Assembly (NCBI GenBank): GCA_947469815.1
Contig: CANIRI010000008.1
Span: 1 to 19,790 of the forward strand
Reading direction: 5' to 3'
Length of the DNA: 19,790 bases
Origin: Comamonadaceae bacterium
Lineage (GTDB): Bacteria; Pseudomonadota; Gammaproteobacteria; Burkholderiales; Burkholderiaceae_C
The translations under genes and the position numbers were made by a program. This document shows, in pieces, positions 5,861 through 19,790 of this stretch (positions within the stretch are counted from its first letter, which is position 1; each line of letters begins with the position of its first letter). Under the pieces are notes generated by a model that saw nothing but the letters and a program-made list of their open reading frames with translations, was not told the origin of the DNA and did not search any database.

Positions 5861-7162
5861 TTACAGTCGCCAAACCGTATGGGAAATCTTGTTTTTGAGA
5901 ATGGCCTTTACATCAACGACCACGCCGTCCGGGGCCAGCAAGGACTGCAATACCCCCTCAATATTCTCTTTATAGCTGCGGTGAGCGACTGCCAAAATCA
6001 CAGCGTCGGCCTTATTGGGCATTTCATCCAGATCGGTCAGCACCACACCATATTCCCGGATGGCCTCATCTGAATCCGCCAGCGGGTCGTTAACAAAAAC
6101 CTCACAACCGAATTCCCGAAGCTCCCGTATCAAGTCCATGACCTTACTGTTCCTGAGATCGGGGCAATCCTCCTTGAAGGTCAGGCCCAGCACGATGACC
6201 TTTGCCCCCTTGATATTCTTGCCCTTCTGAATCATTAACTTGATCGTTTTTTCCGCAATAAACTTACCCATGCCGTCGTTGATGCGCCGGCCTGCGGTAA
6301 TGACCTGCGGGTGATAACCGAGCATTTCGGCTTTGTGTGTCAGGTAATAGGGATCCACACCGATACAGTGCCCGCCGACAAGCCCTGGCTTGAATTTCAG
6401 GAAATTCCACTTGGTGCCCGCGGCTTCGAGGACTTCGTTGGTATCAATGCCGATCTTGTCGAACAGAATGGCCAATTCGTTCATCAAGGCGATATTCAGG
6501 TCACGCTGGGTGTTTTCGATCACCTTGGCCGCCTCGGCCACCTTGATACTGCTTGCCCTGTGAACACCCGCGGTAATGATGCTTTCGTAGAGCGCAGCCA
6601 CTTTATCCAGTGTTTCCGGCGTATCCCCTGAGACCACTTTGAGGATTTTGGTCAGGGTGTGCTCTTTGTCACCGGGATTGATCCGCTCCGGGCTGTATCC
6701 GACGTGGAAGCCTTCTTTCCACTTCAGGCCCGATATTTTCTCCAGAACCGGGATGCAGACCTCCTCGGTGGCCCCCGGATAAACCGTCGATTCATAGACG
6801 ATCACAGCCCCCTTTTTCATGTGCTGGGCTGCTATGCGGCTGGCGCTGATCAGGGGGGCAAAGTCCGGGATATGCGCTTGATCAACGGGCGTCGGCACTG
6901 CAATGATCAGAAAATCAGCCTTAGCAATCTGCGCGGGGTCCGTCGTGGGTTGCAGCCCCCCTTCACGCACCACTTGCCTGAGTTCATCCGGACTCACTTC
7001 ACCAGTAGGATCAACGTATCGGCAATAAGCATCCACCTTGGCGTGCGAGAGGTCGAATCCGACTGTGCGAAATTTTTTTCCGAACTCCACCGCCAGCGGG
7101 AGACCGACATATCCCAGCCCCAATACAGCGATGGTTGTGCCTTGATGAAGACTTTTTGTCAT
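5861..7162 (-). CDS. tviB: UDP-N-acetylhexosamine 6-dehydrogenase, TviB/WbpA/VipA-like
   Basis: A 433-residue member of the UDP-sugar dehydrogenase family, oxidising C6 of a UDP-HexNAc to the uronic acid with two NAD+. Seen: the dinucleotide-binding IAVLGLGYVGLPLA (about 11-24), FLIIAVPTPVD, YESTVYPGATEE, GYSPERINPGD, and the active-site cysteine C266 in GLVGGHCIGVDPYY. GLTFKEDCPDLRNSKV marks the C-terminal domain. The YSPERINPGD and GGHCIGVDPYYL blocks are those of the TviB/WbpA branch, not UDP-glucose dehydrogenase. Substrate choice between GlcNAc and GalNAc cannot be settled by eye. The ATG at 7162 follows the epimerase stop by one base, with AAGGTC as ribosome site; a longer in-frame extension to 7354 lies inside the epimerase gene and is not coding. 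Confidence 0.92.
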   Translation of the reverse strand: MTKSLHQGTTIAVLGLGYVGLPLAVEFGKKFRTVGFDLSHAKVDAYCRYVDPTGEVSPDELRQVVREGGLQPTTDPAQIAKADFLIIAVPTPVDQAHIPDFAPLISASRIAAQHMKKGAVIVYESTVYPGATEEVCIPVLEKISGLKWKEGFHVGYSPERINPGDKEHTLTKILKVVSGDTPETLDKVAALYESIITAGVHRASSIKVAEAAKVIENTQRDLNIALMNELAILFDKIGIDTNEVLEAAGTKWNFLKFKPGLVGGHCIGVDPYYLTHKAEMLGYHPQVITAGRRINDGMGKFIAEKTIKLMIQKGKNIKGAKVIVLGLTFKEDCPDLRNSKVMDLIRELREFGCEVFVNDPLADSDEAIREYGVVLTDLDEMPNKADAVILAVAHRSYKENIEGVLQSLLAPDGVVVDVKAILKNKISHTVWRL

Positions 7163-7163
7163 G

Positions 7164-8171
7164 TCAGACCTTGAAGTATTCACGGTACCAGGCCACGAAC
7201 CGTTTAATACCCACGTTGACCTGGGTGGCCGGCTTGTAACCAAACTGTTGCACCAGATCATCCACATCGGCATAGGTATCAGGCACATCACCAGCCTGCA
7301 GCGGCAACATTTCCATTTCCGCCTTCCTGCCCAGCGCCTCTTCCAGCGCAGCAATGTAATCCATTAGCTCAACGGGGCAATTGTTGCCGATGTTATAGAC
7401 GCGCCATGGGGCCTTGCTGGTCGCGGGGTCGGGCTGATCACCGTTCCAGGCGGGATTGGCCATCGCCGGTCGATCAAGAACCCGGATTACGCCCTCAACG
7501 ATGTCATCGATGTAAGTAAAGTCACGGCGGTGTTTGCCAAAATTAAATACCTGGATCGGCTCCCCCGCCAGAATGGCTTTGGTGAACTTGAACAAGGCCA
7601 TGTCAGGCCGCCCCCAAGGCCCATAGACGGTAAAGAATCGCAATCCGGTGGTCGGCAAGCCATAGAGGTTGCTGTAGGTGTGCGCCATCAGCTCGTTGGT
7701 CTTTTTGCTCGCGGCGTAAAGGCTCAGCGGATGATCGACGTTCTGATGGGTTGAGAAAGGCATCGCCGTATTGGCGCCATACACGCTGGAACTACTGGCG
7801 TAGACCAGATGCTCAACACCGTTGTGGCGGCAACCCTCGAGAATGTGGGCGAAACCCACGACATTGCTGTCAATGTAGGCGAGCGGGTTTTCGATGGAAT
7901 AACGGACGCCCGCTTGCGCAGCAAGATTCACGACTCTCTGGGGTTTGTGCAAGGCGAAGGCATCATTCATCGCCTTGCGGTCAGCCAGGTCAGCCCGGAT
8001 ATGGGTGTAATTCGGGTGATTGGCATGACGCGCAAGGCGCGCCTCCTTGATCGCCGGATCGTAGTAATTATTGTGATTATCGATGCCGATGACATGATCA
8101 CCGCGTTCGATCAATCGCAACACCAGGGCCGAGCCGACAAAACCAGCCGCACCGGTGACGAGGATTTTCAT
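7164..8171 (-). CDS. NAD-dependent epimerase, UDP-glucuronate 4-epimerase type
   Basis: A 335-residue extended SDR. It has [12 protein letters not shown] at the N terminus, [13 protein letters not shown] (the block typical of UDP-GlcA 4-epimerases such as CapI/LspL), SSSSVYG, and the catalytic YAASK with Y152 and K156. [22 protein letters not shown] and [14 protein letters not shown] are also diagnostic. The family converts UDP-GlcA to UDP-GalA. The ATGA overlap with ugd upstream (8168-8171) and the one-base gap to the TviB-like gene indicate coupled translation. Ugd therefore supplies its likely substrate directly. Action on the UDP-HexNAcA made by the TviB-like enzyme, as TviC does, is an alternative I consider less likely. 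Confidence 0.9.
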
Positions 8172-9493
8172 GAATTTCTTCCGATTGCGTAATATTCAAG
8201 CCCGGCTTGTCGCAAAACTTCCGGCTCGTAGAGATTACGGCCATCAAATACGGCCGGCACCTTGAGTTTGGCTTTAATCAGGGAGAAGTCAGGCGACCGG
8301 AACTCCTTCCATTCGGTGATGATCGCCAACACATCCGCCTCTTCAAGCGCTGCCATGGGCGACTCTTCGTAAGTAATACGGGGCTCATCACCAAGAATCC
8401 GTTTGGCTTCCCCAATGGCGACAGGGTCGTAAGCCTTGACCTTTGCCCCACGTGCCAGCAGTTGCCGGATCAGCGTAAGGCTCGGCGCCTCGCGCATGTC
8501 GTCGGTGCCCGGCTTGAACGCCAACCCCCACAATGCAATAGTCTTGCCGGAGAGATCCTCGCCCAGACGGTTGATGATTTTATCCGCCAGAATCTGCTTC
8601 TGTGCCGTATTGACCTCTTCTACTGCCCGCAAAACCCGCAGGGTCTGCCCGAATCCGCTGGCTGCTCGAATCAGCGCCTGCACATCCTTGGGAAAACAGG
8701 AACCGCCATAACCGGCTCCGGGATAGAGGAATTGATAGCCGATCCTCGGGTCGGATCCGATGCCCTTACGCACTTGCTCAACGTCAGCCCCCAAAACCCC
8801 GGCAAGATTGGCCAGCTCGTTCATGAAACTGATACGCGTCGCCAACATGGCGTTGGCAGCATATTTGGTCAGCTCTGCACTTCTGGGGTCCATCACAATC
8901 AGCCGTTCATGATTGCGCTGAAATGGCGCATAAAGCTGTTGCAGTATTTCAATGACCTTGGGGTCTTCCGTGCCGGCAATGATGCGATCAGGCCGCATGA
9001 AGTCTTCAACGGCAGCGCCCTCCTTCAGGAATTCCGGATTTGAGGCAACACTGAACGGCAGCACCAAGCCTCGCGATTGAATCTCCCGGTCTATCGTCTC
9101 CCGGACCCGATCCACAGTCCCCACCGGCACAGTGCTCTTGTTGATGACAACCTTGTAGTCGGCCATATGCCGGCCGATGCTGGATGCAGCCGCGATGACA
9201 TGCCGCAGGTCTGCGGAACCGTCTTCATCCGGCGGGGTACCAACAGCGATGAATTGAAGCGCTCCGTGGTCCACAGCAGACTTGGCATCGGTGGTAAAAA
9301 CAAGCCTGCCAGCGGCCGCATTTTTCCGGACCAAATCCCCAAGCCCCGGTTCATGGATCGGAATCCCGCCTTCCTTAAGACATTGGATTTTTGCTGCATC
9401 GACGTCCAGACAAAGGACGTCGTTACCGACGTCTGCCAGACAGGCGCCGGTCACCAAACCAACATAGCCAGTGCCAATAATCGTAATTTTCAT
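8168..9493 (-). CDS. ugd: UDP-glucose 6-dehydrogenase
   Basis: A 441-residue cytoplasmic enzyme oxidising UDP-glucose to UDP-glucuronate. Seen: [18 protein letters not shown] at the N terminus, [34 protein letters not shown], and the catalytic C266 in [32 protein letters not shown] is the C-terminal domain signature. The length is normal for the bacterial single-polypeptide family. It begins 12 bp after the EPS regulator gene and ends overlapping the epimerase start, so it is the first enzyme gene of the operon. Confidence 0.96.
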
Positions 9494-15802: not shown

Positions 15803-16349
15803 GCAGCACGCCTTTTTCACGCCTCAGGAATATGCTGGAGCAAAGATCAAGGTAAATCTGCCCCAGTTGGTAGCATCCCTCAAGGTATTCCTTCGAGACG
15901 ATGTCGGTCTTCAGGAGTCGGTCCCACTGAAAGTTGGCCAGTGCTTTAAAGAAAATTCCGGGGCGATGCACTACTTTCAGACCAGCCTCGACGGCATCAT
16001 GCTCCAGCACGTGTGTCAGCACAATGTTGTCATAGCGTCTCGGCAATGCTGCACTCTCGAATGTCGATTGAATAAATTGAATCTTACGGCCAAGTACCTT
16101 CTTCGCGGCTTCGGTCGCTACATCAAATGCTTCGACGCAGGGGATGTCGTCAAAATGGGGCAGGAATCGGCGCGTGAAATCCCCCGTGTAACTGCCAAGC
16201 TCGAGAAGGCTGCCGTTTCTGTAGAACGGCTCAAAAGAGTGAATCATGAAGGGATGCATCACATCAAAATCAAAGCTATAGGCGTATTTTTCGTTGACCG
16301 CGTTTTTCATATCGCTTAGTTCAAGGTCGTAGTTTCTGGGCCCGGGCAT
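15795..16349 (-). CDS. Class I methyltransferase with apparent internal deletion
   Basis: A 184-residue protein. SLLELGSYTGDFTRRF (about 47-62) is motif I, CVEAFDVA the next strand, and YDNIVLTHVLEH (106-117) the strand-4 region. Normally about 60 residues with the substrate-binding strand and CPN-type motif follow. Here residue 118 onward reads DAVEAGLKVVHRPGIFFKALANFQ, which looks like the C-terminal part of the family; the end, CYQLGQIYLDLCSSIFLRREKG, is intact. I infer an in-frame internal deletion at about 15998/15999. The ATG at 16349 has GGGAGAAGG upstream. The reading frame is open, but the product may be inactive. It overlaps the next methyltransferase gene by 8 bp. Confidence 0.7.
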   Translation of the reverse strand: MPGPRNYDLELSDMKNAVNEKYAYSFDFDVMHPFMIHSFEPFYRNGSLLELGSYTGDFTRRFLPHFDDIPCVEAFDVATEAAKKVLGRKIQFIQSTFESAALPRRYDNIVLTHVLEHDAVEAGLKVVHRPGIFFKALANFQWDRLLKTDIVSKEYLEGCYQLGQIYLDLCSSIFLRREKGVLRG

Positions 16350-16366
16350 GGCTTGCCTTCTCCCAG

Positions 16367-16443
16367 TTAAGCTTCAAGCACAGCCAGACCGAAGCCGTTC
16401 CGGCCAAACTGATTGCCGTTGTAGATTAGGTAGACGTTGCTGT
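16367..16443 (-). pseudogene. C-terminal remnant of an unrecognised gene
   Basis: The minus strand reads IDSNVYLIYNGNQFGRNGFG then LAVLEA and a TAA stop at 16369-16367, 17 bp before the next gene's ATG and beyond its ribosome site. This spacing is what an upstream operon gene would have. The coding appearance ends where the repeat block beginning at 16444 starts, so the body of the gene seems to have been lost when the repeat arrived. I do not recognise the family. Confidence 0.4.
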
Positions 16444-16527
16444 CAATCAGGCATAAGCATCGCCGTCGCTTTTCTCAATACTGCCCCGGATTACGGCCTG
16501 CGGCCTGCATCCGGGCTACGAACCCCG
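16444..16527 (-). repeat. REP element with 32-bp arm, copy 1
   Basis: A 32-bp arm (16444-16475) matches 17846-17877 exactly. A CCCCGGATT...CATCCGGGCTAC REP in inverted orientation (about 16484-16519) and GAACCCC follow it. The whole block of about 84 bp recurs at 17846-17931 and, in part, at 19635-19695. It truncates the remnant gene to its left. Confidence 0.8.
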
Positions 16528-16539
16528 ACGCCCGCCTTT

Positions 16540-16600
16540 GTAGCCCGGATGGAGCAACGCGCGCCCTGCAAGAAGTCCCCTTGGGGGGGGAAATCCGGGA
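16540..16600 (+). repeat. GTAG-headed REP, degenerate tail
   Basis: GTAGCCCGGATGGAGCAACG begins at 16540 and is followed by AAGTCCCCTTGGGGG and AAATCCGGG (to 16600). This is the plus-orientation partner of the preceding inverted copy, with a diverged centre. It ends just before the stop of the orphan antitoxin gene at 16614. Confidence 0.7.
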
Positions 16601-16613
16601 AGAAACCCATGCA

Positions 16614-16988
16614 CTACGCCGCACTCAGCTCATCCGGCTGTCGAATCAGACTCTCTGCGGGAATATCCAGCCCATGATGGAGCTTCCAGATCATCTTCAG
16701 GGTCAACGGGCGCTTATGGTTAAGGATTTCGTAAACCCGGTTTAAGCGACCGATCATCGGCTTTAAATCCTTGGGGGTCAGGCCCTTTTGCTCCATCTGG
16801 AATTTGATGGCCTCTACCGGATCGGGCAGTTCAAGCGGAAAGTGCTTCCTCTCGTAGGCCTCAATCAGCGTCACCAATACGTCAAGGCGTTCACCATCAG
16901 CGGTATTCGCTTTAGCGCCCATCAGCGCCTCGACATCCTTCAACGCCGCACGATAGTCAGCCTTGGTCTTGATCGGTTTGATATTCAT
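16614..16988 (-). CDS. HigA-type HTH antitoxin (COG5499-like), orphan
   Basis: A 124-residue cytoplasmic protein. MNIKPIKTKADYRAALKDVE and the ERLDVLVTLIEAYE helix are typical of the long HigA antitoxins. The C-terminal HTH is KFQMEQKGLTPKDLKPMIG with RLNRVYEILNHKRPLTLKMI. These normally follow a RelE-like HigB toxin, but no toxin frame is found upstream on this strand; the next gene is the divergent higBA pair 144 bp away. The ATG at 16988 is chosen because the family begins MxIKPIxTxxDY; an in-frame extension to 17048 looks non-coding. Possible roles are an anti-addiction or regulatory antitoxin, or a decayed TA remnant. Confidence 0.82.
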   Translation of the reverse strand: MNIKPIKTKADYRAALKDVEALMGAKANTADGERLDVLVTLIEAYERKHFPLELPDPVEAIKFQMEQKGLTPKDLKPMIGRLNRVYEILNHKRPLTLKMIWKLHHGLDIPAESLIRQPDELSAA

Positions 16989-17072
16989 CGTGTTGTCTCT
17001 TTCAAAAACCCTGAGCGTCCGACTATCGTCTTGGGATTGACTATTCAAGGATTACACTCGTTGCCGCCATCC

Positions 17073-17101
17073 TTGACATTGTAATCTACCCAATTACAAT
17101 G
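17073..17101 (+). promoter_or_regulatory. Promoter of higBA overlapped by an inverted repeat
   Basis: TTGACA (17073-17078), a 16-bp spacer and TACAAT (17095-17100) form a near-consensus sigma70 promoter ahead of the GTG at 17133. The half-sites CATTGTAAT (17077-17085) and ATTACAATG (17093-17101) form a perfect 9-bp dyad with a 7-bp spacer, covering the spacer and the -10. Binding by the HigA antitoxin would block RNA polymerase, the usual type II TA autoregulation; the binding itself is inferred. Confidence 0.75.
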
Positions 17102-17132
17102 CGTAAGTAATGCACCACCATACAATCCGATC

Positions 17133-17411
17133 GTGATTCGCAACTTTCGCCACAAAGGGCTGGAGCGGTATTTCGCGAAGAGCGACCGGAGCGGCATCGA
17201 TGCCAGGCAAGCCGACCGCATCCGCCGGATTCTAGACCTACTGGATGCGGCGGCGGCACCCGCAGATATGGACCTGCCGGGATACCGCTTCCACAGCCTC
17301 AAGGGCGACCGCAAAGGCGCCTACGCGGTATCAGTATCCGGAAACTGGCGGATCACCTTCCGGTTTGAACGGGGCGATGCTGTAGACGTGAATTTGGAGG
17401 ATTACCACTGA
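17133..17411 (+). CDS. higB: HigB/GraT-family toxin (RelE/ParE fold)
   Basis: A 92-residue protein, normal length for HigB toxins, which in this family are ribosome-dependent mRNA endonucleases. It starts VIRNFRHKGLERYFAKSD from GTG, followed by IDARQADRIRRILDLLDAA, LPGYRFHSLKGDRKGAYAVSVSGNWRITFRF and the ending VDVNLEDYH. The WRITFRF and EDYH blocks and the basic residues preceding them are hallmarks of the GraT/HigB group. The toxin comes first and overlaps the antitoxin by one base (TGATG), typical of higBA. Transcription comes from the TTGACA/TACAAT promoter just upstream. Confidence 0.93.
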   Translation: MIRNFRHKGLERYFAKSDRSGIDARQADRIRRILDLLDAAAAPADMDLPGYRFHSLKGDRKGAYAVSVSGNWRITFRFERGDAVDVNLEDYH

Positions 17412-17713
17412 TGAAGACCATGCGAGATCCGAAGAGAAAACCCACCCACCCGGGCGAGGTGTTGCGTGCGGACGTGCTGCCCGGCCTGGATATGTCCCAG
17501 ACTGAGTTTGCGAAACGGCTCGGCGTGAGTCGGCTGTCCGTGTCTGAACTTTTGCTCGAAAAACGGGGGCTCTCCCCTGACATGGCCATCCGCATTGGCA
17601 AGCTGACCAACACCACGCCGGAGAGCTGGCTGCGGATGCAGCAAGCCTTGGACCTGTGGGAGTTGGAGAGGGACAGCAAGCGCTATCGGGATATAGAGCC
17701 GGTGGCGGTATAA
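17411..17713 (+). CDS. higA: HigA/GraA-family antitoxin
   Basis: A 100-residue HTH_3 protein. It has RKPTHPGEVLRADVLPGLDM, then the helix-turn-helix SQTEFAKRLGVSRLSVSELL, and TNTTPESWLRMQQALDLWE, all diagnostic of the HigA addiction-module antitoxin family. It neutralises the adjacent toxin and probably represses the operon through the dyad at 17077-17101. The C terminus (RYRDIEPVAV) is intact. The stop is followed by a REP array. Confidence 0.95.
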   Translation: MKTMRDPKRKPTHPGEVLRADVLPGLDMSQTEFAKRLGVSRLSVSELLLEKRGLSPDMAIRIGKLTNTTPESWLRMQQALDLWELERDSKRYRDIEPVAV

Positions 17714-17745
17714 CCGATCGATCCCGATTCCGGTCCTGAGCCCTT

Positions 17746-17800
17746 GTAGCCCGGATGCAGCGCGCCTTTGTAGCCCGGATGAAGCGAAGCGAAATCCGGG
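17746..17800 (+). repeat. Two tandem GTAG-headed REP elements
   Basis: The first, GTAGCCCGGATGCAGC, begins at 17746 and is short. The second, GTAGCCCGGATGAAGCGAAG, begins at 17770 and continues to AATCCGGG (17793-17800). They lie directly after higA and start a 300-bp repeat array without coding potential that extends to about 18050. Confidence 0.85.
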
Positions 17801-17845
17801 GGAAGTCACCTTGGGTGGAAATCCGGGGGAAGTCACCTTGGGTGG
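17792..17845 (+). repeat. Perfect 27-bp tandem duplication
   Basis: A 27-bp unit beginning AAATCCGGGGGAAGTCACC is present twice in exact tandem (17792-17818 and 17819-17845). A near-identical inverted copy of its GGAAGTCACC(T/C)TGGGTGG part lies at about 18011-18029. Exact identity suggests recent duplication by slippage or recombination. Confidence 0.9.
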
Positions 17846-17931
17846 CAATCAGGCATAAGCATCGCCGTCGCTTTTCTTAACACCCACCCCGGATTCCCGG
17901 CCTGCGGCCTTCATCCGGGCTACGAACCCCG
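17846..17931 (-). repeat. REP element with 32-bp arm, copy 2
   Basis: The arm 17846-17877 is identical over 32 bases to 16444-16475. It is followed by ACCCCGGATTCCCGGCCTGC and CATCCGGGCTACGAACCCC, an inverted REP. Together with the plus-strand copies on each side this makes a BIME-like mosaic between higBA and the relE-like pair. Confidence 0.85.
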
Positions 17932-17947
17932 CGCCATAACCGCCCTT

Positions 17948-18055
17948 GTAGCCCGGATGAAGCAACGCGGAATCCGGGGGCTGTCCCCTTAGGCGACGGC
18001 CTTTGGCCTGCCACCCAGGGTGACTTCCTTCGGGGCGCCTCCGGGTTACAAAATC
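17948..18055 (+). repeat. GTAG-headed REP and degenerate inverted tail
   Basis: GTAGCCCGGATGAAGCAACG starts at 17948 and closes with GGAATCCGGGGG by about 17980. Downstream to about 18055 are an inverted partial copy of the 27-bp unit (about 18011-18029) and a degenerate CTCCGGGTTAC resembling an inverted REP head. No gene is visible before the antitoxin stop at 18084. Confidence 0.65.
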
Positions 18056-18083
18056 TGCTGAACCAAATGAAATGGCCAGCGCA

Positions 18084-18398
18084 CTACGCAACGATCTCCA
18101 GGCCCCGCTTCTGCACCAAGTGGAGCAGTTTGAGTGCGGTCCCGGTCGGCCGCTTTTGACCGATTTCCCACTTCTGCACCGTCGATACGCTGGTATTGAG
18201 TAGCGCTGCAAAGACCGCTTGGCTCACGTTTGAGGTTTCACGGATTTTCTTGATCTTACGGGGTGACAACGGTTCAATCGGCGGCAAACACAACCGATCG
18301 AATTCGCGCAGGGTGACCTGATCCATCACGCCCGCGGCATGTAGCCCCTGGGCCGTCTCACGCACGGCCTCAAGAATTGCTGATTTTGTCTTCCTCAT
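18084..18398 (-). CDS. HTH antitoxin of a RelE-like TA pair
   Basis: A 104-residue XRE-family protein. The N-terminal helix is AILEAVRETAQGLHAAG. The HTH is at about 48-95: LSPRKIKKIRETSNVSQAVF, AALLNTSVSTVQKWEIGQKR, PTGTALKLLHLV. The SVSTVQKWE..K.PTG block is typical of NadS/YiaG-like antitoxins. An excellent ribosome site GGAGGT lies 7-8 bases before the ATG, inside the toxin gene; the 29-bp overlap with the toxin shows translational linkage. It likely neutralises the upstream toxin and binds the palindrome at 18786-18806. Confidence 0.9.
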   Translation of the reverse strand: MRKTKSAILEAVRETAQGLHAAGVMDQVTLREFDRLCLPPIEPLSPRKIKKIRETSNVSQAVFAALLNTSVSTVQKWEIGQKRPTGTALKLLHLVQKRGLEIVA

Positions 18399-18765
18399 CG
18401 CAATTTACCTCCATCAATTCACCGGCACCTTGTGCCTTGGCTAACGCCTGAGGCGTCTGCAATAATAAATACGCGGCAAGTTTCTTCAAGGCATCTTCCT
18501 CGTCCTTGTCGATGTTGCTGCGTTCGTTTTTGGGAAAACCAAACACGAAAAACCACCGGTTTCCCTTGTTGGTCGCCACCAGCGTACGAAATCCGCCCCT
18601 TTTACCTTGACCTTGGCGGGCAATCCGTTTTTTCAGTAGCCCGCCACCCAAATCTGCTTCATAAAGTCCAGCCGCCATTTCGCGGACCGCTTCGCAGAGG
18701 GCGCGCGTGCTCAGGTTTTGTTTTCTGGCCCAACGGTCAAACCAGAGGGTTTTGTATATCGCCAT
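18370..18765 (-). CDS. RelE-like toxin (PF06296/DUF1044 type)
   Basis: A 131-residue protein. The N-terminal part, IYKTLWFDRWARKQNLSTRA, is followed by the family core GGLLKKRIARQGQGKRGGFR, TLVATNKGNRWFFVFGFPKN and ERSNIDKDEEDALKKLAAYL. The core GK.GGFRTL and FGF.KNER blocks identify the RelE-like family that partners XRE antitoxins. It is slightly longer than usual through a C-terminal acidic tail (VNCDEEDKISNS), which is the part overlapping the antitoxin. GAGGAAG lies 7 bases before the ATG. A 21-bp palindrome sits 20 bp upstream. Likely an mRNA interferase, by family. Confidence 0.9.
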   Translation of the reverse strand: MAIYKTLWFDRWARKQNLSTRALCEAVREMAAGLYEADLGGGLLKKRIARQGQGKRGGFRTLVATNKGNRWFFVFGFPKNERSNIDKDEEDALKKLAAYLLLQTPQALAKAQGAGELMEVNCDEEDKISNS

Positions 18766-18785
18766 GCCTGTCTTCCTCGGCTACT

Positions 18786-18806
18786 CTATAGCACTAAGTG
18801 CTATAG
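18786..18806. promoter_or_regulatory. 21-bp palindromic operator of the RelE-like TA pair
   Basis: CTATAGCACT (18786-18795) and AGTGCTATAG (18797-18806) are exact complements around one central base. The site lies 20 bp before the toxin ATG, where type II antitoxins normally bind to autoregulate. Such a long perfect dyad is unlikely by chance. Confidence 0.75.
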
Positions 18807-18888
18807 ATTGCAAGCGCAAAGCTTGAACACATTGCCCTACCCATTTTGGCGCGTTTCGTCGCCTGGCACCCGCGGTTTGCTTGGCAAA

Positions 18889-18903
18889 AAAGGCTTGGCC
18901 TTT
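18889..18903. repeat. Small hairpin between the two TA modules
   Basis: AAAGGC-TTG-GCCTTT is a 6-bp perfect stem with three-base loop. On the minus strand the stem is followed by a T-run, giving a weak terminator shape, but no minus-strand gene ends here. The surrounding 18807-18905 shows nothing else recognisable. Confidence 0.3.
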
Positions 18904-18916
18904 AATTGACAAAAGT

Positions 18917-18927
18917 AGTTCATTGAA
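18917..18927. promoter_or_regulatory. Short palindrome upstream of brnT remnant
   Basis: GTTCA-T-TGAAC is a perfect 5-bp dyad, 12 bp before the ATG of the brnT remnant and just after a TTGACA hexamer (18906-18911). No good -10 sits at the right spacing. It may be the antitoxin operator; five base pairs is weak evidence. Confidence 0.3.
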
Positions 18928-18939
18928 CCACTCTAAACC

Positions 18940-19235
18940 ATGAAGTTCGAATAGGACCCGACTAAAAGTGATGCCTGCTTTTCGCAAAGAGGATTCGATT
19001 TTGCCTACGTCCTTTTGCCTACGTCATTCACGCCTTCCTCGATGCCAATCGCCTGATTAAACAAGATCACCGTTGGGACTATGGCGAAGATCGATATCAG
19101 ATGCTGGGGCAGATCGACGCTCGTTTGTTCTTTGTGACGTACACCGTGCGCAGTTCCGTGATTCGAATCATCTCAGCCCGTAAAGCCAATCAACGAGAGG
19201 TAAAGGAATATGAAGACCATTCGCGTGAAGCTTGA
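18940..19235 (+). pseudogene. brnT: BrnT-family toxin gene with amber codon and 14-bp duplication
   Basis: From ATG at 18940 the frame reads MKFE, TAG (18952-18954), then DPTKSDACFSQRGFDFAYV. BrnT proteins commonly open with E/Y-W-D-P-x-K, so TAG most likely replaces TGG (Trp). At 18999-19026 a stretch of 13 bases (TTTTGCCTACGTC) occurs twice with a 14-bp period, shifting the frame. After it the sequence continues as VIHAFLDANRLIKQDHRWDY, GEDRYQMLGQIDARLFFVTY and SSVIRIISARKANQREVKEY, the diagnostic BrnT C-terminal half. Repairing both lesions gives about 93 residues, the family length. The stop at 19235 overlaps the antitoxin start, as in intact pairs. A TTGACA at 18906 may be the old -35. 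Confidence 0.85.
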
Positions 19236-19545
19236 TCCAGTTCGTATTGGAAAGTCAGCCAAGGGCAGAGCCAATCTGCGGATGCTCGATGCCACGACAG
19301 ATGCTGACATTCTGATGCAGCAAAAAACTGACGATGCCGAGGCCCTGCAGGATGCCGCCAAATTCGCGCGAAGGGTGCGCAAACGACTGGGTTTGACCCA
19401 ATTGGAATTCTCTCAGCGGATCGATGTCTCGCTCGATACCATTCGTAATTGGGAACAAGGCAAGCGTTGCCCGACAGGGGCCGCCAAGGCGCTTCTTAAA
19501 ATACTGGATAAGGCCCCTGAGTCTGCGTTGTTGGCGCTGAGTTAA
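19210..19545 (+). CDS. HTH antitoxin paired with the broken BrnT
   Basis: A 111-residue protein. The N-terminal part (MKTIRVKLDPVRIGKSAKGR and NLRMLDATTDADI) is the toxin-binding/linker region. A C-terminal XRE helix-turn-helix follows: RVRKRLGLTQLEFSQRIDVS, LDTIRNWEQGKRCPTGAAKA, LLKILDKAP. Most BrnT toxins pair with ribbon-helix-helix BrnA; this is the HTH type. The ATG overlaps the brnT frame by 26 bp and AGAGGTAAAGG precedes it as ribosome site. The reading frame is intact although the toxin gene is broken, so it may survive as a free regulator or antidote. Confidence 0.88.
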   Translation: MKTIRVKLDPVRIGKSAKGRANLRMLDATTDADILMQQKTDDAEALQDAAKFARRVRKRLGLTQLEFSQRIDVSLDTIRNWEQGKRCPTGAAKALLKILDKAPESALLALS

Positions 19546-19575
19546 GCCTCGCGGCTCAGATAAAGCAAAGCCCCC

Positions 19576-19687
19576 GTAGCCCGGATGCCCGCACTGGTAG
19601 CCCGGATGTAATCCGGGGAGAAGCACCGCGATCATTTTTCTCAACACCCACCCCGGATTCCCGGCCTTCGGCCTTCATCCGGGCTAC
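19576..19687. repeat. REP cluster after the BrnT-type antitoxin
   Basis: Plus-orientation heads GTAGCCCGGATG lie at 19576 (short) and 19597 (ending TAATCCGGGG). An inverted partner lies at about 19650-19687 (CCCCGGATTCCCGG to CATCCGGGCTAC). The segment 19635-19695 resembles the right part of the blocks at 16444 and 17846. The arrangement again forms a BIME-like pair immediately after a gene stop. Confidence 0.85.
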
Positions 19688-19715
19688 GAACCCCGATGAC
19701 CTTGCCACGGTTTCA

Positions 19716-19750
19716 CGTTCATCAGATTGCAGGTAAATGGAAGATGAACG
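19716..19750. promoter_or_regulatory. Inverted repeat before the right-edge gene
   Basis: CGTTCATC (19716-19723) and GATGAACG (19743-19750) are perfect 8-bp complements with 19 bases between, ending just ahead of the ribosome site of the next gene. It could be an operator or a 5' UTR stem. Confidence 0.4.
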
Positions 19751-19759
19751 GAGGACGTG

Positions 19760-19790
19760 ATGAGCAAGAGGGAATTGGTTCCAAACCGGC
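19760..19790 (+). CDS. Start of an unidentified gene, cut by window edge
   Basis: ATG at 19760 follows GGAGG at good spacing and opens the frame MSKRELVPNR before the window ends. Ten residues are too few to name a family. The strong ribosome site and the inverted repeat upstream support a real start. Confidence 0.5.
   Translation, partial: MSKRELVPNR

What the first reader, a model, noticed from the sequence alone, without database searches (positions are those of the whole stretch)
18940..19235. BrnT toxin gene killed twice while its HTH antitoxin stays intact
Seen: an amber codon at 18952-18954, exactly where BrnT proteins carry the conserved Trp of the W-D-P-x-K start (TGG to TAG needs one base), and a 13-base sequence repeated with a 14-bp period at 18999-19026 that shifts the frame. 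Beyond both, the BrnT protein is recognisable to its end and the overlapping antitoxin frame is open. Either toxin decay with retained antitoxin, or a phase-variable switch, would explain this: loss of the 14-bp copy restores the frame, although the amber codon would still need suppression.
Basis: partly seen in the sequence, partly recalled or inferred. Interest (0 to 1): 0.72.

Follow-up and report, generated by a model that had tools for sequence, protein, structure and literature searches.

The report
Dead BrnT toxin beside living antitoxin
A bacterial poison-and-antidote gene pair in which the poison gene was recently broken while the antidote gene is intact, a form of decay that recurs independently among the relatives examined.

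Summary
At 18940-19235 lies a BrnT-family (PF04365) toxin gene that cannot make its full protein: TAG at 18952-18954 stands where 109 of 112 relatives have Trp, and a 14-bp tandem duplication (18999-19026) shifts the frame. The overlapping 111-aa HTH antitoxin (19210-19545) is open. A 92%-identical locus in what appears to be a different organism (L005) has the toxin intact, so this copy broke recently. Toxin-first decay fits; a phase switch does not: there are two unequal copies, a second lesion, and no repeat in the gene in 18 other toxin-less loci. The case is not isolated: 22 of 89 distinct relatives with an intact antitoxin have a broken or missing toxin, scattered on the tree (20 state changes for 23 losses, window included). 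All 13 intact toxins found from the toxin side have an intact antitoxin. A 17-bp palindrome before the toxin start, probably the antitoxin's operator, is kept in the window and in 13 of the 22 toxin-less loci; in two it lies directly before the antitoxin. Toxin loss with antitoxin retention is in print for other TA families. New member of a known kind, modest interest.

The parts
18915..18931 (+). 17-bp palindrome GTAGTTCATTGAACCAC, probable operator of the antitoxin
   Evidence: 15 of 16 consensus positions; in 66 of 67 intact relatives the best site lies 281-289 nt before the antitoxin ATG, here 295, i.e. 281 plus the 14-bp duplication; one match with up to 3 mismatches in the window against 0.04 expected. 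Binding not tested.
18940..19235 (+). brnT pseudogene, from its ATG to the TGA of the shifted frame
18952..18954 (+). TAG stop where relatives carry Trp
   Evidence: Trp in 109 of 112 relatives
18999..19012 (+). first copy of the 14-bp tandem duplication
19013..19026 (+). second copy of the 14-bp tandem duplication
   Evidence: a single copy in L005
19026..19235 (+). 3' piece of brnT in the shifted frame with its TGA
   Evidence: PF04365 E 5.4e-18; the first ATG of this frame is 19101, leaving 44 aa
19210..19545 (+). intact 111-aa HTH antitoxin
   Evidence: HTH_3 36.9 bits against a cut-off of 23; MqsA_antitoxin 28.5, below its cut-off of 30; dN/dS 0.054 against L005

Best explanation
This is a horizontally acquired type II toxin-antitoxin operon of the BrnT plus HTH-antitoxin kind whose toxin has recently died. 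Shown: two lesions in the toxin gene, an open antitoxin, a retained palindrome in front of the operon, and an intact operon at 92% identity in another genome. Inferred: the antitoxin is still translated from its own ribosome-binding site inside the dead gene, represses the operon through the palindrome, and could neutralise a homologous incoming BrnT. Decay goes toxin first because losing the antitoxin first should be lethal while losing the toxin is at worst neutral. The scatter of losses over the tips of the tree suggests that most toxin-less loci are young and do not last.
For: Lesions and frames. Intact twin L005. L005's genome has the TA stretch at 92% but only 373 nt at 68% of window 5861-9493, and no match to two other stretches of the window's genome. 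Changes against L005: antitoxin 2 nonsynonymous and 11 synonymous, toxin 3' piece 3 and 9, 5' piece 2 and 2, so most of the divergence accrued under constraint. 22 of 89 distinct relatives with an intact antitoxin lack an intact toxin, with differing lesions. Tree: 20 state changes for 23 toxin-less rows. From the toxin side 13 of 13 intact toxins over 110 bits have the intact antitoxin.
Against: No reads. The two-sided comparison is small (5 of 18 against 0 of 13, one-sided p 0.05), and the two samples share 13 loci. The 89 loci were mostly found through the antitoxin, which favours intact antitoxins. 17 further BrnT loci at 54-78 bits (one of them, L139, partial) have no antitoxin of this family; their partners were not examined. 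The tree has few firm branches: 12 of 86, forcing only 6 changes. The palindrome is rarer in toxin-less loci (13 of 22) than in intact ones (58 of 67), p 0.012. No sigma-70-like promoter was found. A marine survey (PMC12654330, passages seen) counts more orphan toxins (4386) than orphan antitoxins (3099), so the asymmetry is not universal.
Confidence: 0.85

Rival explanations
1. Selected retention: the antitoxin with its operator is kept because it protects the cell from homologous toxins on incoming elements (anti-addiction) or regulates other genes. The lesions are the same; the claim is about why the antitoxin stays.
For: Antitoxin dN/dS 0.054 against L005; the toxin-less pair L111/L114 has dN/dS 0.19 at dS 0.20, and in both the palindrome lies 38-39 nt before the antitoxin. 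The cassette moves between genomes. Anti-addiction is proposed in PMC2654758 and PMC4861877 (passages seen).
Against: Toxin-less loci are scattered as shuffled labels are (204 of 500 shuffles as low), which suggests transience. In the window most of the constraint may predate the break. No second palindrome with fewer than 3 mismatches was found in the incomplete own genome.
Confidence: 0.3
2. Assembly or sequencing error in the draft genome; the real gene is intact.
For: No reads seen; draft genome; the toxin's remaining letters are still conserved.
Against: Two different kinds of error within 90 bp would be needed. P0004, from other assemblies, implies an insertion at the same place. The repeat copies differ by one base.
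Confidence: 0.05
3. Phase-variable switch through the 14-bp repeat.
For: A tandem repeat in the coding frame; P0004 implies a 17-nt insertion at the same place where the window has 14.
Against: Two unequal copies; the stop is a second lesion; no repeat in the gene in 18 distinct toxin-less relatives; L005 has no repeat and no stop.
Confidence: 0.04
4. A shortened protein of 44 aa from ATG 19101 is functional.
For: The 44-aa frame scores 39.2 bits, over the PF04365 cut-off of 34.5.
Against: It covers profile positions 46-77 of 77 only; several toxin-less relatives have lost this part too (L055, L057, L069, L111, L114, L115).
Confidence: 0.02

Closest known systems
BrnT/BrnA type II toxin-antitoxin system, Brucella abortus type (PMC11980606, passages seen)
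   Same: PF04365 toxin gene first, antitoxin second, overlapping frames; an antitoxin with a DNA-binding domain.
   Different: Antitoxin is HTH, not the RHH domain of BrnA; toxin dead. That paper counts 2 HTH and 31 RHH among 33 BrnT-BrnA fusions.
BrnT plus HTH-antitoxin pairs of Pseudomonadota, e.g. on the Methylomarinovum plasmid NZ_AP024719
   Same: Same gene order and families; antitoxin 65.5% and toxin 67.4% (query L005) identical.
   Different: The plasmid's genes are annotated as a BrnT family toxin and an HTH protein; the window's toxin is broken.
Orphan antitoxins and toxin loss in Xanthomonas (PMC4861877) and in reviews (PMC7354431; PMC2654758); passages seen
   Same: Toxin lost, antitoxin kept; in Xanthomonas at least 7 of 26 systems against one antitoxin loss.
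   Different: Here one gene family is followed, with lesions typed, the palindrome traced and losses placed on a tree.

Membership tests
BrnT toxin (PF04365) | Profile match over the curated cut-off | tested here: met
   3' piece 65.5 bits against 34.5
BrnT toxin (PF04365) | Complete open reading frame | tested here: not met
   Stop and frameshift
BrnT toxin (PF04365) | Ribonuclease activity and growth arrest | not testable with these tools
   Bench assay
BrnA antitoxin (RHH) | BrnA/RHH domain in the partner | tested here: not met
   HTH_3 and HTH_31 over cut-off, no BrnA or RHH family listed at E up to 1
Type II antitoxin of HTH (Xre/MqsA-like) kind | HTH domain, second gene of the operon, own operator | tested here: inconclusive
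   HTH and order met; palindrome present; binding and neutralisation not tested
Orphan antitoxin from a decayed TA pair | Intact antitoxin, broken cognate toxin, intact pair in relatives | tested here: met
Phase-variable (contingency) gene | Repeat copy number that varies among close relatives and switches the frame | tested here: inconclusive
   L005 lacks the repeat; P0004 implies 17 nt; no population reads

The most novel reading that the evidence does not exclude
In this BrnT family toxin shedding is a repeated route to a self-contained unit of operator plus HTH antitoxin, seen in its final form in L111 and L114, which lives on as an autoregulated immunity or regulatory gene; the window shows an early stage of that route.
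Probability: 0.2. Interest if true: 0.5.

Novelty: new member of a known kind. Interest (0 to 1): 0.3.

Why it matters
Why orphan antitoxins are common is open. This family offers a countable set of toxin losses with typed lesions, intact sister loci and a visible probable operator, so that neutral decay and selected retention could be told apart. The window itself is one ordinary, recent case.

Tried and rejected
Phase variation: rejected as main reading (see rivals). Amber suppression: not pursued, since the frameshift remains; no tRNA gene lies in the window. Rfam families in 16000-19790: none at gathering scores. Promoter and terminator scan of 18700-19790: no site. Regulon search with the palindrome: no further site with fewer than 3 mismatches in the own genome; the reversed control pattern gave more hits than the pattern, 7 against 3 per strand. 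PADLOC: only weak HTH matches to the antitoxin, none to the L005 toxin. Other BrnT matches of the own genome (L001, L003, and L004 below the cut-off) have no copy of this antitoxin on their contigs. Phages and E. coli collections and viral contigs were not searched.

Rows dropped from 94 distinct before the count of 89: L071 (contig edge), L122 (partial antitoxin with a stop, no toxin), L123-L125 (distant partial matches). L086 was printed in the wrong orientation; it is the same locus as L042, so one search scanned 18 distinct toxin-less loci; L107, L111, L114 and L115 were read but not scanned for repeats. L055 is counted as antitoxin-intact although its start codon reads ATA. An earlier count missed loci on the reverse strand and was replaced.

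Full report
What is there. The window is contig C8, 19790 bp, of a draft genome of 2.31 Mb in 317 contigs, 75% complete. Its last 3.2 kb hold small toxin-antitoxin genes beside a cluster with polysaccharide genes. A gene that starts at ATG 18940 reads MKFE and then TAG at 18952-18954. A 14-nt unit is present twice at 18999-19026, 13 of 14 bases alike. After it the frame has changed, and 19026-19232 matches BrnT (PF04365) from profile position 23 to its end, E 5.4e-18. The antitoxin at 19210-19545 is open for 111 aa and is an HTH protein. The stop stands where 109 of 112 full-length relatives have Trp.

An intact twin. L005, a Burkholderiales bin, carries the pair at 92% DNA identity (645 of 698 positions) with a complete 93-aa BrnT, no stop and no duplication. 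The rest of that genome is not that close: of window 5861-9493 only 373 nt match, at 68%, and two stretches from other contigs of the window's genome do not match at all (an empty answer is weak evidence). So the cassette probably moved horizontally, and the window's copy broke after the two parted. The toxin's 3' piece differs from L005 by 3 nonsynonymous and 9 synonymous changes, its 5' piece by 2 and 2 in 19 codons, the antitoxin by 2 and 11. The toxin was under constraint for most of the time since the split; the break is young.

Not alone. 80 loci found by the antitoxin (best 80 of 151) plus the order and class samples (399 and 369 genomes) give 89 distinct loci with a full open antitoxin. 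The toxin is intact in 67, broken in 15 and unrecognisable in 7; in the first set alone 18 of 79 lack it. The lesions differ: a stop at the same Trp codon plus a deletion in L064; stops in L042 and L053; frameshifts in L013, L017, L021, L056, L062, L065 and L107; deletions in L018, L057 and L082; loss of the 5' part in L026, L041 and L059; toxin nearly or wholly absent in L027, L055, L069, L111, L114 and L115. Of 36 same-genus genomes searched, one (G031) has this antitoxin at high score, and its toxin has a stop; it is the same locus as L042. On the antitoxin tree the toxin state changes 20 times for 23 toxin-less rows, no more clustered than shuffled labels (mean 20.7; 204 of 500 as low). 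Only 12 of 86 inner branches are firm, and these force at least 6 changes.

Direction of decay. In the order and class samples 18 full antitoxins were found, window included, and 5 lack an intact toxin. From the toxin side 13 intact toxins over 110 bits were found, and all 13 have the intact antitoxin. One-sided Fisher p is 0.05, on samples that share loci: suggestive only. Against this, 17 further BrnT loci at 54-78 bits lack this antitoxin; their partners were not examined. In print, a Xanthomonas survey found toxin loss in at least 7 of 26 systems and antitoxin loss in one (PMC4861877, passages), whereas a marine survey lists more orphan toxins than orphan antitoxins (PMC12654330, passages).

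The palindrome. In 66 of 67 intact loci the best site for a 17-bp palindrome of the form GTAG-N2-CA-N-TG-N2-CTAC lies 281-289 nt before the antitoxin ATG, just before the toxin start; the exception is L051. It reaches 12 or more of 16 consensus bases in 58 of 67 intact loci and in 13 of 22 toxin-less ones, against about 2% of shuffled sequences. The consensus was chosen after seeing the window and L005; the fixed distance in the other loci does not depend on that choice. The window's copy is 18915-18931, 15 of 16. In six toxin-less loci with deletions the site lies 38, 39, 73, 84, 166 and 200 nt before the antitoxin (L111, L114, L082, L057, L018, L064; L057 scores only 11). That it is the antitoxin's operator is inferred from its place and from the HTH domain.

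The duplication. None of 18 distinct toxin-less loci scanned has a tandem repeat in the gene. However P0004, a 95-aa database protein, begins with what matches the window's own out-of-frame reading and continues as BrnT. If its gene starts as the others do, it is 17 nt longer than the intact gene at the same place, where the window is 14 nt longer. This is a second sighting of an insertion at this spot from another assembly.

Judgement. Recent toxin-first decay of a mobile BrnT/HTH pair explains the observations best. Whether the antitoxin is kept for a benefit is open: tip-scattered losses speak for transience, the L111/L114 pair (palindrome and antitoxin alone, dN/dS 0.19 at dS 0.20) for occasional persistence. 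The literature searches listed no paper whose title names toxin loss in BrnT/HTH pairs; only openly licensed papers are held, and most hits were seen as listings only. The lethality argument for toxin-first decay is recalled general knowledge.

Noticed in passing
18084-18765 (-) and 18785-18807: RelE-type toxin (PF06296, 154.8 bits) with an HTH antitoxin, and a 23-bp near-perfect palindrome (22 of 23) just upstream, a probable operator of its own.
   Followed up: partly
17133-17713 (+): HigB-like toxin (PF05015) and HigA-family antitoxin (TIGR02607), both open.
   Followed up: no
16614-17048 (-): HTH protein weakly like HigA (HTH_3 17.2 bits, below cut-off; PDB HigA E 0.0096), with no toxin frame recognised upstream; about 95% identical DNA lies beside the pair in L005. 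Possibly a second orphan antitoxin.
   Followed up: partly
L005:837-1014: A truncated second copy (end of toxin, start of antitoxin, 97% identical to the window) near the intact pair.
   Followed up: partly
19575-19688: Inverted repeats with GTAGCCCGGATG near the contig end; similar short pieces match dozens of places in the genome behind L005, a dispersed repeat.
   Followed up: no
17791-17845: 27-bp tandem duplication (exact run of 28).
   Followed up: no
L111 and L114, stretch before the antitoxin: Palindrome 38-39 nt before a solitary antitoxin of this family, no toxin between, in two genomes of one genus.
   Followed up: partly
L064, toxin codon 5: TAG at the same Trp codon as in the window, in a distant relative.
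   Followed up: yes
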